Shown piece by piece: positions 11,686 through 46,530 of a stretch of 64,000 bases of DNA. The notes under the pieces were generated by a model, which was not told the origin of the DNA, ran no database searches, and saw only the letters and a program-made list of their open reading frames with translations. Within the stretch, counting starts at the first letter, position 1. Every line of letters starts with the position of its first letter. Source of the stretch: Oerskovia jenensis (lineage in GTDB: Bacteria; Actinomycetota; Actinomycetes; Actinomycetales; Cellulomonadaceae). A program made the position numbers and the translations under genes. The DNA lies in NCBI RefSeq assembly GCF_016907235.1, contig NZ_JAFBBO010000001.1:3968001-4032000 (forward strand), read 5' to 3'.

Positions 11686-12513
11686 CTAGCCGCGCGGCAG
11701 CTGCAGGACGCGCGTCAGGCCGGGGGAGTCCGGGTCGTCGACGATCTCGACGCCGTCGAGCCACGACCCGATCACGTGCGCGAGCTCGCCCGGGTGGCTG
11801 AAGTTGATCGCGTGCGCGGCACCCTCGATGAGGGCGACCGTGGTCAGGTCCCCCGCCAGTCGGCCGACCTCCCGGACCCGCGCAGGTGGTGGCATGAGCG
11901 GGTCTCTGCTCCCGACGACGGCGAGCGTCGGCACCGTCGAGGTGATGATCCGCTCCAACGAGGGGAAGCGGGTGAGCTCGCTGAACAGGTTGAACGTGTT
12001 GACGGGCCCGAACCGCAGGTAGTCCGGGACCGCGAGGCGTGCCATCCTCGGGCTCTCGCGAGGACCGTCGAGCGCGAGCTGGCCGATGGCGCGTGCGAGC
12101 CCCTGGTTGTGGCGGCCCCCGGCGGGCGACACGAGCACCATGCGGTCCACCCGTTCCGGCGCGCTGTGCGCGATCTCGAGGCTGACCGGGCAGCCCATCG
12201 AGTTGCCCACCAGCACGACCTTCTCGAGTCCCAGGGCGTCGAGGATGCGGATCAGGGCGTGCGCGAGCCCAGGGATGCCGAGGGTGTAGTCCCACCGTTC
12301 GCTCCGGCCGTGCCCCGGCAGGTCGGGGACGAGGTTCGTCGCCCGTGCGGCCAGGACCTCGGCCGTGGGCAGGAGGGACGAGCCGGAGATCCCGAAGCCG
12401 TGCACGTGGACGATCGGCAGGGCGTCGGGGACGTCGGGACTGCGCCGGTAGAACACGCGGTGCCCGTCGATCTCCGCCGTGTCCTCGGTCCATCCGGCGG
12501 TGTTCGCGGCCAT
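11686..12513 (-). CDS. Alpha/beta fold hydrolase (MhpC-like)
   Basis: A 275-aa hydrolase. The N-terminus has the oxyanion segment HVHGFGISG and DLPGHGRSERW, typical of the MhpC/epoxide-hydrolase group. The nucleophile is Ser105 in GNSMGCP. The acid is probably in VVGSRDPLMPP and the His in EGAAHAINF. Substrate unknown. I use the ATG at 12513 rather than the GTG at 12549: it leaves the standard N-terminus and has a CACGAT box 6 nt upstream, a degenerate leaderless arrangement. The next minus-strand gene, 75 nt upstream, is the exported PKD-like protein. Confidence 0.8.
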   Translation of the reverse strand: MAANTAGWTEDTAEIDGHRVFYRRSPDVPDALPIVHVHGFGISGSSLLPTAEVLAARATNLVPDLPGHGRSERWDYTLGIPGLAHALIRILDALGLEKVVLVGNSMGCPVSLEIAHSAPERVDRMVLVSPAGGRHNQGLARAIGQLALDGPRESPRMARLAVPDYLRFGPVNTFNLFSELTRFPSLERIITSTVPTLAVVGSRDPLMPPPARVREVGRLAGDLTTVALIEGAAHAINFSHPGELAHVIGSWLDGVEIVDDPDSPGLTRVLQLPRG

Positions 12514-12588
12514 GAGCCGATCGTGGCAGAGCAGTGGGGCGTGGGCCACCCGTGCGGTGATCCGCTTGCTGGGTGCGCCGGTCGCGTC

Positions 12589-13512
12589 TCAGGGCAGGGG
12601 TTCGGTGACGAGGCGGGAGCGGGCTTCGTGGACCTGGAGGGGTGCGGCAGTGCTGGTGGTTGTCGCAGTGCCGGTGATGGGGGTCCAGGTGGGGGCGCCG
12701 GTGATGCGGAAGCGGGCGGTCCAGGTGGTGGTCAGGGTGATGGTGACCTGGTCGGCGGGCTGGGTGTAGGTGTGGTGGACCGTGTGGTCGGGGTAGGGGG
12801 CGCCGGGGTCGGTCGTGACCAGGGGTGGGGTGGCGTCGTCGTAGTCCCAGGTGAAGGTGTCGGGGTCGACGCGCAGGGTGACGGGGATGCCGAGGAGCGT
12901 CGTGGCGAGCTCCTGGGAGTCGTCGGTGGTGTGGGTGATGGTCGGGATGTTGACCAGGGTCCACCCGTCGGGGGGTTGGACGCTCACCGGGGAGGGGCTG
13001 ATGGCCAAGGTGGCCAGGGCGCGCTCGGCCTCGGCGGTGAGGTCGGCCGGGGTGACGCAGGACTGGTCGACGACGGGCTCCCCGGCAGGTGACCACGCAC
13101 CGGGGACACCGTCGGCGTCGATGGTGCGGGTCTGGCGGTACAGGGCGCCGAGGTAGTAGGAGTCCGCGGCGCACTCGATCCCGGCCTCGACGAGGCGCCT
13201 GGCCTGGCCACAGCCGCGCGAGAGGTCCGTGTCGGCGTCCAGGCCGTGGAAGACCTCGCACTGCTCGGGAGTCGCCCGGAAGAACTTCTCCGTCGCCGGT
13301 CCACCCGTGCTGCCGGCCTCGAACGCGCCACCACCGCGGGTCGCGTACTCCGCCTCGAGATTGACCGACTGACCGTCGGTCCTGCCAGTGAAGCCCCAAT
13401 CTCCTGGAGGTAGTTCGGTAGTCGTCGAAGAGGGAGATGGGAGGAGGGGTGCCGTCAAGGCGAGGAGAACGGTGAGTACTCTTCCGCGGAGCGGAAGCAT
13501 CCTATGCGCCAT
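12589..13512 (-). CDS. Exported PKD-like hypothetical protein
   Basis: A 307-aa secreted protein of unknown function. Residues 1-26 form a signal peptide (Arg-rich start, hydrophobic core, APLLPSPSS). The middle contains four Cys (CEVFHGL, RGCGQAR, IECAADS, QSCVTP), probably disulfides. The C-terminal ~130 residues (FTWDYDD, then HHTYTQPADQVTITLTTTW) have the W-D-Y-D and terminal T-Y-x-x-P spacing of PKD-like beta-sandwich domains. It begins 6 nt after the DUF6318 lipoprotein stop, so the two form an operon and probably work together at the cell surface. There is no membrane anchor after the signal. Confidence 0.65.
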   Translation of the reverse strand: MAHRMLPLRGRVLTVLLALTAPLLPSPSSTTTELPPGDWGFTGRTDGQSVNLEAEYATRGGGAFEAGSTGGPATEKFFRATPEQCEVFHGLDADTDLSRGCGQARRLVEAGIECAADSYYLGALYRQTRTIDADGVPGAWSPAGEPVVDQSCVTPADLTAEAERALATLAISPSPVSVQPPDGWTLVNIPTITHTTDDSQELATTLLGIPVTLRVDPDTFTWDYDDATPPLVTTDPGAPYPDHTVHHTYTQPADQVTITLTTTWTARFRITGAPTWTPITGTATTTSTAAPLQVHEARSRLVTEPLP

Positions 13513-13518
13513 GTCCGC

Positions 13519-14142
13519 CTAGCCCTCTGGAACCGATGCGATCTCGACGATCACCCAGCTGCCGTCGCTTCGCCCGACCTCAACTCGGGCGGTCGCGACG
13601 GAGGTCGGCTCCGAGGCGATTTCCACCCCGTCGCGATCGACCACGGTCAGGGCTTCTTGTGTCACCGTCACGTCGAGCGGATAGATTCCCGTCTGCTCGT
13701 CGCGTACGTACTTGCCGGGGTCGTCGACCGACGCGTCCATCTCACCTCCGGCGTATGACCCGCCAGACGAAGCGAGCCACGCCACTTGCTCCAAGGTCTC
13801 TGAGCAGTATCCGCACGTGCGGTGAGACATTGCCTTCAGATCCGAGTCGTCGACAGCGGCGAGCGCATACCCCGACAGCTCGACGTAGTACTCCGCCGCC
13901 GCGGCCGCTCCCTCGGCGTCGTCGGTGTCCATCGCGGGAGGGCGCTCGGGCTTGACGGGCCCGCTCGGGGACGGTGTCGGGCTCGGCGCGGGTGCCGGTT
14001 CGTCGACGGTCTCGGGGGGTGGTGACGGCGTCGGCTCCTGCGCGCCTGCGCACCCGGCGACCAGTCCACCCGCGACGACCAGGACGACAGCCGCCCGTAC
14101 GCACTGGATGGCGTGACGGGACCTGCGGGCACGACGAGACAT
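13519..14142 (-). CDS. DUF6318 family lipoprotein
   Basis: A 207-aa surface lipoprotein of unknown function. The ATG at 14142 follows AGGGGGT and begins an Arg-rich signal with lipobox VAGC. A Pro/Ser/Thr/Glu-rich linker of ~45 residues follows. The DUF6318 domain comes next, with AAEYYVELSGYALA and the conserved Cys pair CGYCSE. The longer frame up to 14343 lacks a better start. First gene of a two-gene operon with the PKD-like protein. Confidence 0.75.
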   Translation of the reverse strand: MSRRARRSRHAIQCVRAAVVLVVAGGLVAGCAGAQEPTPSPPPETVDEPAPAPSPTPSPSGPVKPERPPAMDTDDAEGAAAAAEYYVELSGYALAAVDDSDLKAMSHRTCGYCSETLEQVAWLASSGGSYAGGEMDASVDDPGKYVRDEQTGIYPLDVTVTQEALTVVDRDGVEIASEPTSVATARVEVGRSDGSWVIVEIASVPEG

Positions 14143-14520
14143 GAGACCCCCTGCATGGCACGGACGACGATGCCGACCTTGGCACCCCCGCGAACTCCCC
14201 ACAGAACCTAGCGAAACGGACCACTCCAGGGAACCCCACCGTCCCGCCCTGTGGACAACCTCCCGACCCAGGGCGGCCGGCGGAGCAAGGCACCAGCACC
14301 GAGATGCTGTTCGTCGTCGCTCATCCACGGAGCCGAGCGACAACCCCCAGCATCTCGGAGAACCCGTGGGCTGACTCGCGCGCGACGGAGCGGACAGTTC
14401 ACCCGGTTGCTCGCGTCGGATCGTCTGCTTCTGGACTAATGTCCCAAACGCTCGCTGCCCTCCTCCCTCGGGGCGACGCGTCCTTCCCGCGATGTCGCCA
14501 CACCTGACGAACGGCCTGCC
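14143..14520. other. Non-coding gap between divergent DUF6318 and DUF4041 genes
   Basis: This 378-nt stretch holds the upstream copy of the 58-nt nested hairpin and a TAATGT -10-like box at about 14437-14442, which would give the downstream gene a leader of ~75 nt. The GC content is a little lower than its surroundings. I find no reading frame with a credible start. Confidence 0.5.
14300..14357. repeat. 58-nt nested hairpin element, copy 1
   Basis: The outer arms CGAGATGCTG (14300-14309) and CAGCATCTCG (14348-14357) pair perfectly, with one more C-G pair outside. The inner arms GTCGCTC (14316-14322) and GAGCGAC (14335-14341) pair perfectly around the loop ATCCACGGAGCC. The internal loop is TTCGTC on the left and AACCCC on the right. 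A second copy in the same orientation lies beyond the DUF4041 gene. Confidence 0.85.
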
Positions 14521-16215
14521 ATGACCTCACCAGAGCTTCGCTACGTCTCACCCCCGAACTGGCCCGCGCCCCCAGACGGCTGGAGCCCGCCGGACGGGTG
14601 GTCTCCGCCCGCGAGCTGGCCGGCCCCTCCGCCAGACTGGCAGTTCTGGGTCCCGGTCGCGGCACCCACGCCGATGCCCCAGCAGCCCACCGCGTCGGCA
14701 CCGGTGCCCGCGCGGACGCCGGCGCCCGCTCCCGCGCCAGCGCCCGCTCCCGCCGCGGCATTCCCGCCGGCCCAGACCCCGCCGGCCCAGTCGAGCCCCG
14801 TCTTTGCCGCAGCCACCCCTGCGGTGGGCATGCCGCCGTCGGGCACGGGACAGGTCCCTACTCAGACCGGCGCGCCGTCCGGCTCCGCGATCCCGTTCTT
14901 CGGCGCGCGGAAGAAGGCGCGTGAGCTCGCCGGCGAGACCGACGCGCTCCGCGCGGAGGTCGAGCTTCTGCGTGCCGAGCTGACACGCATCGGTGCGATG
15001 GACGTCGCTCAGATCGAGCAGGAGCGTGTCACGGCGCAGCGGCGCTATGTCGAGGAGCGGACGGCTCGCGAGGTCGAGCAGGAGGCCGCCCGCCAGCGGT
15101 TCGCTCGCGAGCTCGCGGACCTCGGGGCGCAGGTCGGGACGCGCGATGCCCAGGTGCGCGACCTGAGCCGGCTCGTCGTGCAGCTGGAGGAGACTGCGCT
15201 CCTGCAGGAGGTCGGGATCTACGACTACCAGCACCCTCTGGAGAACGCCGAGGCCTACAAGGTGCGTCTCGCGCAGCTCAGGGTCCGGATCAAGGAGATG
15301 ACGACGGCCAACGGAGGCGCCGTCGAGGCATCGACGACCTGGCAGGTCAACGGCTCGGCGGCGCAGGGACGCAAGATGGTCTCCGACATCTCGAAGCTCA
15401 TGCTCCGGGCCTACAACGCTGAGGCGGACACCTTGGTGCGCGGGCTCAAGCCCCATCGCCTTGCCGCGAGCGTCGAGAAGCTCGAGAAGACCACCCTCAC
15501 CATCCAGAAGCTCGGCACCTCCATGAGCATCAAGATCTCGCCGCGCTACCACCAGCTGCGTATCCAGGAGCTCGAGCTGACGGCCGACTTCGTCGCCAAG
15601 CTCGCCGCCGAGAAGGAGGCCGAGCGTGAAGCGCGCGAGGCCCTGCGCGAGCAGCGCAAGGTCGAGCTCGAGACGGCCCGTGAGCGCGAACGCCTGAGCA
15701 AGGAGCGCAGCCACTACGAGAACGCGATGGCTGCGCTCGTCGCCAAGGGAGACGCCGAGGCGGTCGAGCGGATGCGGGCCCAGATCGAGGACATCGAGAA
15801 GGCCATCGCCGACCTCGACTACCGCGCAGCCAACCAGCGCGCTGGCTACGTGTACGTCATCTCCAACATCGGTGCCTTCGGCGAGCAGATGATCAAGGTC
15901 GGCATGACCCGTCGCCTCGACCCCATGGACCGCGTCAAGGAGCTCGGTGATGCCTCGGTACCGTTCGGGTTCGACGTGCACGCCATCTTCTTCTCGGACG
16001 ATGCCGTCGGGATCGAGAACAAGATGCACCAGCGGCTCGCCGACCGACGCGTCAACCGCATCAACCTCCGTCGCGAGTTCTTCTACGCGACCCCCAACGA
16101 GGCGCTCGGGCACCTGCGCGACCTCACGGGCGACGTCCTCACGTTCGAGGAGATTCCCGAGGCGCTCGAGTTCCGGCAGAGCCGCGGCCAGGGGGTGGCC
16201 GTCCCGCACGCCTGA
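14521..16215 (+). CDS. DUF4041 / GIY-YIG nuclease (SNIPE-like candidate anti-phage protein)
   Basis: A 564-aa multidomain protein. Residues 1-45 are a Pro/Trp-rich repeat (PPDGWSPPDGWSPPASW), an N-terminal module found on unrelated actinobacterial proteins. Residues 46-120 are a Pro/Ala linker, and ~130-215 is coiled coil. The DUF4041 domain starts near 228 (VGIYDYQHPLENAEAYK), and a second charged coiled coil spans ~345-435. The C-terminal T5orf172/Mug113 GIY-YIG domain begins at 442 (GYVYVISN, then KVGMTRR) with metal-binding Glu499 in GIENKMHQRL. DUF4041 plus GIY-YIG is the architecture of SNIPE, a membrane-associated nuclease that cuts phage DNA at injection. Here no transmembrane helix is seen, so localisation would have to come from the Pro/Trp region. 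Function is inferred. Confidence 0.8.
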   Translation: MTSPELRYVSPPNWPAPPDGWSPPDGWSPPASWPAPPPDWQFWVPVAAPTPMPQQPTASAPVPARTPAPAPAPAPAPAAAFPPAQTPPAQSSPVFAAATPAVGMPPSGTGQVPTQTGAPSGSAIPFFGARKKARELAGETDALRAEVELLRAELTRIGAMDVAQIEQERVTAQRRYVEERTAREVEQEAARQRFARELADLGAQVGTRDAQVRDLSRLVVQLEETALLQEVGIYDYQHPLENAEAYKVRLAQLRVRIKEMTTANGGAVEASTTWQVNGSAAQGRKMVSDISKLMLRAYNAEADTLVRGLKPHRLAASVEKLEKTTLTIQKLGTSMSIKISPRYHQLRIQELELTADFVAKLAAEKEAEREAREALREQRKVELETARERERLSKERSHYENAMAALVAKGDAEAVERMRAQIEDIEKAIADLDYRAANQRAGYVYVISNIGAFGEQMIKVGMTRRLDPMDRVKELGDASVPFGFDVHAIFFSDDAVGIENKMHQRLADRRVNRINLRREFFYATPNEALGHLRDLTGDVLTFEEIPEALEFRQSRGQGVAVPHA

Positions 16216-16259
16216 GGGCGGCGCCGACGGCGGCTCCGATCCCGGGCGGCCCGCAGACG

Positions 16260-16317
16260 CGAGATGCTGTTCGTCGTCGCTCATCCACGGAGCCGGGCGA
16301 CGATGGGCAGCATCTCG
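16260..16317. repeat. 58-nt nested hairpin element, copy 2
   Basis: Identical to copy 1 over its first 36 nt and over the right outer arm; 52 of 58 positions match. The inner right arm is GGGCGAC instead of GAGCGAC, which turns one A-U pair into a G-U pair and keeps the stem. The other changes are in the unpaired right internal loop (GATGGG). Direct orientation relative to copy 1. It begins 44 nt after the nuclease stop codon. Confidence 0.85.
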
Positions 16318-16485
16318 ACAGGCCCGGTGGTTCCCGCGTGGTGCTCTGGGCAGAGCCTCTGCGTGGGCCACGGCACGTACAGTGGCTTCGGCCGTTCCCG
16401 CCCCCTACCTGTCGGAGGACCTGTTGCCCGTCCACGTGCCAGCAGCACCGGTGGCACCCGACGATGACGTGTCGGCGGACCCCGC

Positions 16486-17031
16486 ATGAGCGACGTCCGC
16501 CTGGGCCGGTGCGAGCAGTGCGGCGGCGACGTGCAGTGGCTGCCGTGCTACGACGGCCGCCGTCGGGCCTTCGCTCTCGACGAGGTCCGCAGCGTGCACG
16601 CGGGGGACGAGGTGCGCTGGTTCCTGACGTCGAACCGGGGAGCGGTGCCGGGCACACAGCTCGCGTACAGGCCGACCATGCCGTTCAGGGTCCGGCACGT
16701 GTGCCAGCGCCAGCCCCAGGGCTACGGCACGGGCGGCGAGGACGGCATCGACAAGGCCAAGGCGCTGCGCTCGGCGCCGCAGGTTCGCGAGTTCCAGGTG
16801 CGCCCGCCCTACCGCTTCGGGTACCGCTGGGAGTCGGAGTGGGGGCACATCGTGCACCCGGACCGGGGCCTGTGCGGTGCCAAGGTCATCGGTGAGATGA
16901 CGCCGCGCGAGGCCGCGCGCCTGCCGACCATGCCCATGTGCAAGGAGTGCGTCGTGAGGTACCGTCGCCGCCACCCGCAGGACCCGGTCTTCCGGCCCGT
17001 CGAGCCCGACGGCCCGGCCGAGCCCTCCTGA
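16486..17031 (+). CDS. Hypothetical zinc-ribbon-like protein
   Basis: A 181-aa soluble protein I do not recognise. The N-terminus has CEQCGG and the C-terminal part has LCGAK and CKECVVRY, giving two CxxC-type knuckles that could bind zinc. The middle contains RVRHVCQRQ. The C-terminus is Arg- and Pro-rich. The ATG at 16486 is the first possible start after an in-frame stop; its Shine-Dalgarno is weak. It is followed after 49 nt by the 5'-nucleotidase gene and may be co-transcribed. Confidence 0.6.
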   Translation: MSDVRLGRCEQCGGDVQWLPCYDGRRRAFALDEVRSVHAGDEVRWFLTSNRGAVPGTQLAYRPTMPFRVRHVCQRQPQGYGTGGEDGIDKAKALRSAPQVREFQVRPPYRFGYRWESEWGHIVHPDRGLCGAKVIGEMTPREAARLPTMPMCKECVVRYRRRHPQDPVFRPVEPDGPAEPS

Positions 17032-46358: not shown

Positions 46359-46429
46359 CCGGTTCCACCCGTGGAGCGCCGACGCGAGTCCATCGCGGAC
46401 CGCGGTGCCGAGGAACGCGCTGGTCGCCC

Positions 46430-46488
46430 GGAACGACGAACGGCGTGGGCCGGGTGACGAGCACCCGGCCCACGCCGTTCGTCGTTCC
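46430..46488. terminator. 27-bp perfect bidirectional terminator hairpin
   Basis: 46430-46456 and 46462-46488 are perfect inverted repeats with an ACGAG loop, between convergent VanZ and fumC. It is the longest stem in the window. Confidence 0.9.
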
Positions 46489-46530
46489 TCCCGAGGCACC
46501 GCCCTCTCGGGCAGGAGCCTCAGCGAGCGG

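What the first reader, a model, noticed from the sequence alone, without database searches (positions are those of the whole stretch)
14300..16317. SNIPE-like DUF4041/GIY-YIG nuclease bracketed by direct copies of a 58-nt hairpin
The protein at 14521-16215 joins coiled coils, DUF4041 and a GIY-YIG nuclease, the core of the SNIPE anti-phage protein. It lacks the membrane helix expected of SNIPE and instead carries a Pro/Trp-rich actinobacterial N-terminal module. The whole gene sits between two same-orientation copies (52/58 identical) of a nested hairpin found nowhere else in the window. That layout resembles a cassette that moves or is exchanged by recombination at the hairpins. A defence gene delivered between structured repeats would be a new kind of unit. 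The proteins before and after it look chromosomal.
Basis: partly seen in the sequence, partly recalled or inferred. Interest (0 to 1): 0.78.

Follow-up and report, generated by a model that had tools for sequence, protein, structure and literature searches.

The report
SNIPE-type nuclease in a defence hotspot
A bacterial gene that looks like the known anti-virus DNA cutter SNIPE sits at a chromosome spot where relatives keep other virus-defence genes; the two hairpins around it belong to a dispersed family usually found just after genes, so they are probably stop signals rather than ends of a mobile cassette.

Summary
The protein at 14521-16215 has DUF4041 plus GIY-YIG and matches PADLOC's PD-Lambda-1 (SNIPE) model at E=1.1e-106. 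Two direct 58-nt hairpins (52/58) bracket it.

The cassette reading is not supported. The hairpin is dispersed: at least 11 strong places in this genome, 9 and 8 in two sister species, mostly just 3' of stop codons (23 of 29 within 100 nt). At 13 other loci of this nuclease family only weak hits appear. The closest relative, G005, lacks the gene through a deletion with 6-nt microhomology that cuts through hairpin 2, not a hairpin-to-hairpin excision.

The locus is a defence hotspot: between the same flanking genes lie type I restriction genes in G003 and G006, a ZorA gene in G001, and a deletion scar in G005.

Lack of a membrane helix is not new: the SNIPE paper reports it for 34% of homologues. 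The Pro/Trp N-terminal module also heads host proteins that have a hydrophobic segment (8 of 8 examined), so membrane recruitment is plausible but untested.

Hairpin 1 is the real oddity: it shares its loop only with hairpin 2 and is the one of 30 classified intergenic copies lying between divergent genes.

The parts
14521..16215 (+). SNIPE/PD-lambda-1 family nuclease, 564 aa: P/W-rich module (about 1-48), low-confidence linker (49-123), long helices (128-230), DUF4041 (292-347), helices (341-438), GIY-YIG (442-533)
14521..14664 (+). Pro/Trp-rich N-terminal module shared with other proteins of the genus that carry a hydrophobic segment
   Evidence: no Pfam match
16015..16017 (+). codon of Glu499, aligned with Glu414 of the PD-lambda-1 control; E414A abolishes defence in E. 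coli SNIPE (PMC13190303, passage)
14300..14357 (.). hairpin copy 1, between the divergent DUF6318 gene and the nuclease gene; sister of copy 2, origin unresolved
16260..16317 (+). hairpin copy 2, 44 nt after the nuclease stop codon; stem fully paired as + strand RNA through G-U pairs; probable terminator or 3'-end stabiliser
14263..16480 (.). segment without counterpart in G003, whose contiguous DNA homology covers 11686-14262; in G002 and G003 homology resumes about where the 16486 gene starts
12589..14145 (-). gene for a predicted secreted protein and DUF6318 gene, also present at this locus in G003, deleted in G005
11686..12549 (-). alpha/beta hydrolase, left flank of the hotspot in G001, G002, G003, G005, G006
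16486..17031 (+). small protein with sub-threshold DUF6083 match, right flank of the hotspot, followed by 5'-nucleotidase

Best explanation
A chromosomal nuclease of the SNIPE (PD-lambda-1) anti-phage family sits in a defence hotspot between an alpha/beta hydrolase gene and a DUF6083-like/5'-nucleotidase gene pair. Inferred mode of action: the DUF4041 plus GIY-YIG body cuts incoming phage DNA during injection, as shown for E. coli SNIPE; the P/W-rich N-terminal module, which heads membrane-type proteins of this genus, takes the place of the membrane helix by recruiting the protein to a membrane complex. Hairpin 2 is the gene's 3'-end hairpin (terminator-like). Hairpin 1 is a sister copy left by an unresolved local duplication or exchange. 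Shown here: domains, aligned catalytic residue, no helix by hydropathy, hotspot, dispersal and 3' placement of the hairpin family, deletion in G005. Inferred: anti-phage activity, membrane recruitment, termination.
For: PD-Lambda-1 model E=1.1e-106; DUF4041 and GIY-YIG Pfam matches; 30% identity to an annotated PD-lambda-1, with Glu499 aligned to Glu414. Hotspot cargo by PADLOC: REase_I 6.6e-221 and MTase_I 1.4e-187 in G003, REase_I 7.2e-98 (fragment) in G006, ZorA1 5.9e-133 in G001, between the same flanking genes. Nuclease gene third-position GC 0.896 against a mean of 0.950, sd 0.024, of 48 predicted genes. Hairpins: 11 places at E<1e-8 in the genome; 29 of 30 classified intergenic copies lie 3' of at least one gene, 10 of 30 between convergent genes against 17% of random intergenic placements; stems kept through double changes at several pairs, among them 7/52, 8/51, 9/50 and 16/43. 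P/W module: 8 of 8 other carriers examined have a hydrophobic segment starting 42-77 residues from the module start, KD19 2.28-3.09.
Against: No phage test exists for this protein. The hairpins have no T-run and the terminator scan did not report them. Hairpin 1 lies between divergent genes, and weaker family members at one further locus (L045:14620, L057:13308, L096:6382) lie near gene starts, so termination does not explain every copy. Three of 34 copies fall inside or overlap a predicted gene. In the first 17-copy alignment only one pair showed a change on both sides, a count reached by 474 of 500 shuffles. The P/W module has no Pfam family and its function is unknown.
Confidence: 0.75

Rival explanations
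1. Hairpin-bounded cassette: the nuclease gene entered, and can leave, by recombination between the two sister hairpins.
For: The two copies share a loop found in none of the 27 other copies compared. The left limit of homology with G003 lies 38 nt before hairpin 1. A secreted-protein/DUF6318 unit present twice in this genome has its left edge of identity 4 nt outside a hairpin. G003 has one hairpin of the family within its different cargo.
Against: No relative seen has one intact hairpin of this subfamily in place of the gene. The G005 scar is a microhomology deletion through hairpin 2. The doubled unit sits at a site that has no such hairpin in G005. Beside 13 other loci of the nuclease family only weak hits, best E=0.0012. 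The only plausible gene between the hairpins is the nuclease itself.
Confidence: 0.08
2. The hairpins are mobile repeats (REP or MITE-like) that landed beside the gene and carry no function for it.
For: Dispersed, 3'-biased palindromes; a strict pattern was found in 4 of 149 relatives, all of this genus. At the greA locus G002 carries three copies of this subfamily where G000, G001, G003 and G005 carry a differently sequenced hairpin.
Against: Many copies have the same neighbours in two to four species (read by eye) and compensated stems, which suggests retention for a role. No associated transposase was looked for.
Confidence: 0.2
3. The DUF4041/GIY-YIG protein is a housekeeping or phage-remnant nuclease, not defence.
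For: tblastn matches occur in phage records (40 of 50,697; 1 covers 80% of the query) and on plasmids (185 of 72,556; 0 cover 80%).
Against: Patchy: a relative of the DUF4041/GIY-YIG body in 2 of 7 genomes of the genus; the locus holds restriction and ZorA genes in relatives; the family has tested anti-phage activity in E. coli (PMC13190303).
Confidence: 0.1

Closest known systems
SNIPE (PD-lambda-1), Saxton et al., Nature 2026, PMC13190303
   Same: DUF4041 followed by GIY-YIG with the catalytic Glu; long helices around them; variable N-terminal region
   Different: No membrane helix by hydropathy; P/W-rich module plus low-confidence linker at the N terminus. Section 9 (read) reports 34% of homologues without a predicted membrane helix and names DivIVA-like, type III secretion ATPase-like and PH domains; the P/W module is not named in section 9 or the passages seen. 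Its Supplementary Table 3 was not available.
DUF2510-headed DUF4041 nucleases of other actinobacteria (G006, Arthrobacter)
   Same: Same body, small Trp-containing N-terminal module (DUF2510 E=4.8e-14 and 4.4e-14)
   Different: The window's module is a different P/W repeat with no Pfam match
Rho-independent terminators / REP-like 3' palindromes (features recalled)
   Same: Extragenic hairpin just 3' of genes, often between convergent genes
   Different: No T-run; conserved CGAGA...TCTCG ends and a near-constant length of about 58 nt

Membership tests
SNIPE / PD-lambda-1 | DUF4041 domain | tested here: met
   PF13250 E=6.2e-18
SNIPE / PD-lambda-1 | GIY-YIG nuclease with catalytic Glu | tested here: met
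   PF13455 and PF10544; Glu499 aligned with Glu414
SNIPE / PD-lambda-1 | whole-protein model | tested here: met
   PDLC03976 E=1.1e-106 over residues 165-555
SNIPE / PD-lambda-1 | N-terminal membrane helix (66% of homologues per the paper, so not strictly defining) | tested here: not met
   KD19 maximum 1.03 against 3.37 in the control; hydropathy only
SNIPE / PD-lambda-1 | blocks phage by cutting DNA at injection, contacts tape measure protein | not testable with these tools
   needs experiment
Hairpin-bounded exchange cassette | empty site with one intact hairpin, or other cargo between two hairpins | tested here: not met
   0 of 5 relatives whose locus is visible; G005 scar keeps 13 nt of a hairpin; G003 cargo holds one hairpin with another loop; a weak hit lies in the G006 locus (L118:2860, E=2.4e-4); G004 contig ends before the locus
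Integron cassette (attC) | attC core sites RYYYAAC/GTTRRRY at the arm ends and unpaired extra bases (recalled) | tested here: not met
   read by eye: arm ends are CGAGATG/CATCTCG; no integrase search made
Intrinsic terminator | hairpin shortly after stop codons | tested here: met
   23 of 29 within 100 nt, median 41 nt (own simple gene caller, orthologous copies counted separately)
Intrinsic terminator | run of T after the hairpin | tested here: not met
   the scan of 13000-17000 does not list either copy; flanks of other copies

The most novel reading that the evidence does not exclude
The sister hairpins are traces of, and possibly sites for, an exchange that swapped an ancestral type I restriction island of this hotspot for the nuclease gene: terminator hairpins that double as short homologous joints for replacing defence genes.
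Probability: 0.08. Interest if true: 0.7.

Novelty: new member of a known kind. Interest (0 to 1): 0.35.

Why it matters
It extends SNIPE to an actinobacterial form whose N terminus copies the head of host membrane-type proteins instead of carrying a membrane helix, which makes the paper's idea of an exchangeable N-terminal adapter testable by swapping or deleting one 48-residue module. It also marks a chromosomal defence hotspot shared within a genus, and shows that hairpins on both sides of a gene are not by themselves evidence of a cassette.

Tried and rejected
Cassette exchange at the hairpins: rejected as the leading reading because of the dispersed family, the G005 scar and the greA comparison. 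Integron attC: rejected by eye on the sequence. Rfam: 0 matches at gathering scores in the window. tRNA as landing site: none found in the window. Phage origin of the hairpins: two exact-pattern scans of viral contigs gave 0. DNA search of 14263-16485 in plasmids: 120 records, none covering 80%; the 8 rows shown match only within the nuclease gene. Fold search of the full-length model gave no match at E<=0.001 and was uninformative (mean pLDDT 71.7, pTM 0.36); PDB sequence search gave 0. NCBIfam gave nothing for the nuclease and for five of the six neighbours scanned; the sixth, the hydrolase, matched many families, none of the 25 shown at its curated cut-off. The automatic gene caller placed the nuclease start at 14674; I keep 14521 because the RYxSPPNWP start matches other module carriers.

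Full report
The gene. The ORF at 14521-16215 codes for 564 residues. Pfam places DUF4041 at 292-347 and two overlapping GIY-YIG models, T5orf172 and MUG113, within 442-533. PADLOC's PD-Lambda-1 model covers residues 165-555 at E=1.1e-106. Aligned with a PD-lambda-1 annotated in Escherichia phage PhiR26_1, identity is 30%, and the window's Glu499 falls on Glu414, the residue whose change to Ala abolished defence in E. coli (PMC13190303, passage). Relatives of 41-55% identity are found in Bradyrhizobium, Arthrobacter, Bifidobacterium, Actinomyces and Mobiluncus; 7 of the 10 loci went into the alignment, the others (L107, L110, L113) did not.

The N terminus. Hydropathy shows no membrane helix: the best 19-residue mean is 1.03, against 3.37 for the PD-lambda-1 control. 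This is not new. The SNIPE paper (abstract, section 9 and search passages seen) states that 59% of its homologues have one predicted membrane helix, 7% two and 34% none (474 homologues), and proposes that the N terminus is a variable adapter. Residues 1-48 here are a Pro/Trp-rich module with no Pfam match. One search gave nine other module-type matches in the genus; eight became loci and were examined. They are 51-66% identical over 20-50 residues, and 8 of 8 have a hydrophobic segment starting 42-77 residues from the module start (KD19 2.28-3.09). In G006 and Arthrobacter the nuclease relatives start instead with DUF2510. I infer that the module recruits the nuclease to a membrane complex; this is untested. 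AlphaFold2 (9-row alignment, mean pLDDT 71.7, pTM 0.36) gives a small N-terminal element, a low-confidence linker at 49-123, long helices, and the nuclease domain.

The hairpins. Two direct copies, 52/58 identical, fold better than shuffles. Copy 2 is fully paired as + strand RNA thanks to G-U pairs (-43.2 kcal/mol) but weaker on the other strand (-31.3), as expected if the nuclease transcript is what matters; copy 1 shows no such bias (-34.1 against -40.3). The family is not confined to this gene. A strict pattern finds 6 places in the genome with 0 in the reversed control. A covariance model from 17 copies finds, at E<1e-8, 11 places in this genome, 9 in G002, 8 in G005, 3 in G003 and one each, weaker, in G001, G004 and G006; only 150 of about 24,000 first-look candidates per genome were scored there, so these are lower bounds. 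A pattern over 149 genomes, this one included, hit 4, all of this genus.

Where they lie. Of 34 places examined, 30 are intergenic with two neighbours, 3 lie in or overlap a predicted gene and 1 is at the edge of its stretch. Of the 30, 29 lie 3' of a gene, 23 within 100 nt of its stop, and 10 lie between convergent genes. The exception is copy 1, between divergent genes. The gene calls come from my own simple codon-usage caller, and copies with the same neighbours in sister species are counted separately. Left out of the 34: L054:449, L057:13308, L096:6382, L094:11336, L091:3179 and L047:2876, and the weaker places that were not fetched. The first three belong to a locus, together with L045:14620, where the hairpin lies near gene starts, which does not fit termination.

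Stem conservation. In 29 copies read as 58-mers (L094:6778 and the copies of other length were left out), double changes that keep the pair occur at several positions, among them 7/52, 8/51, 9/50 and 16/43. The automatic count on the first 17 copies was less clear: covariation score reached by 1 of 500 shuffles and cells paired by 4 of 500, but only one pair with a change on both sides, reached by 474 of 500. There is no T-run. Related hairpins with other stem sequences but the same CGAGA...TCTCG ends exist at other sites, including the greA site, where G002 carries this subfamily and G000, G001, G003 and G005 another. I read the family as terminator-like or 3'-end-stabilising elements of this genus.

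The locus. The alpha/beta hydrolase left of the segment and the 16486 gene right of it are conserved neighbours. In G005 their predicted genes are 261 bp apart. The G005 junction joins the left sequence up to 12597 to the right sequence from 16305, with six shared bases; the right part starts inside the 3' arm of hairpin 2 (13 nt kept) and the left part ends in the last codons of the 12589 gene. G003 keeps that gene (90% protein identity) and its DUF6318 neighbour (93%) at this place, contiguous with the window over 11686-14262 at 85% DNA identity, so the G005 state is best read as a deletion. Whether the nuclease gene was present before that deletion cannot be told with certainty; the retained half-arm matches hairpin 2 and not hairpin 1.

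The hotspot. Between the same flanks G003 has a type I restriction enzyme and methylase, G006 a type I restriction enzyme fragment (cut by the stretch given), and G001 a ZorA gene (PADLOC: nine proteins scanned, eight of them from this hotspot in G001, G003 and G006, the ninth from the greA locus; of the eight, three from G003 gave no match and one gave only weak capH/HTH matches). G001 and G006 also show, by eye, HsdM- and HsdR-like genes that were not all scanned. G002 has an operon that was not scanned, and no PADLOC search was made on it. G004's contig ends before the locus. The nuclease gene's third-position GC is 2.3 sd below the mean of 48 predicted genes of the window. So 14263-16480 is variable cargo in a defence hotspot. 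A relative of the nuclease body exists in 2 of the 7 genomes of the genus; in G006 it is elsewhere and without these hairpins. The search over more relatives failed three times.

What remains odd. The two copies share their loop with each other and with none of 27 others; their 5' arm also occurs in one G003 copy, L060. They are therefore local sisters, and copy 1 lies where no gene ends. A single exchange at a hairpin would give this layout, and a unit of about 2.1 kb elsewhere in the genome also has a sharp edge 4 nt outside a hairpin. But that unit sits at a site with no such hairpin in G005, and the one empty allele known here does not come from hairpin-to-hairpin recombination.

Literature. 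Full-text searches for DUF4041 with SNIPE, DUF4041 with phage, PD-lambda-1 with GIY-YIG, and DUF2510 with DUF4041 returned 2, 3, 2 and 0 papers. Three further searches, on terminators in actinobacteria, on a guessed genus with hairpins, and on SNIPE with defence islands, returned 2, 0 and 24 (10 listed); I saw listings only. Only PMC13190303 was opened, and in part.

Noticed in passing
G000:C1:893866 (L047) and G000:C1:4372182 (L050): A secreted-protein/DUF6318 gene pair with a hairpin abutting its stop codon is present twice, 97.7% identical over 831 nt, the identity starting 4 nt outside the hairpin; G005 lacks the pair at the first site.
   Followed up: partly
greA site in L082, L127, L128, L130, L131; pattern places in G000, G003, G005: A further hairpin subfamily (CGAGATGCGG...) with the same CGAGA...TCTCG ends; at the greA site the stem sequence differs between species at about the same position.
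   Followed up: partly
L125:2120-3796 (Mycobacterium phage Mask gene 44): A phage-borne relative of the nuclease (42.8% over 81% of the query) annotated only as hypothetical, near an integrase, an antitoxin and a methyltransferase.
   Followed up: no
phage records H17 and H19 (Corynebacterium phages Poushou, Colleen): Relatives of the nuclease are annotated as ATPase and AAA-ATPase, which does not fit DUF4041/GIY-YIG.
   Followed up: no
L117:11678-13618 and onward (G001:C46): A ZorA gene, with downstream genes that by eye could be the rest of a Zorya system, lies in the same hotspot.
   Followed up: partly
L052:6576 and L086:6729: Two hairpins at corresponding places in G005 and G000 whose two arms come from different subfamilies (GATGCTG on one side, GATCGGG on the other), as if arms had been exchanged.
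   Followed up: no
window 46429-46489: A weaker match to the hairpin model (E=7e-5) in the same window.
   Followed up: no
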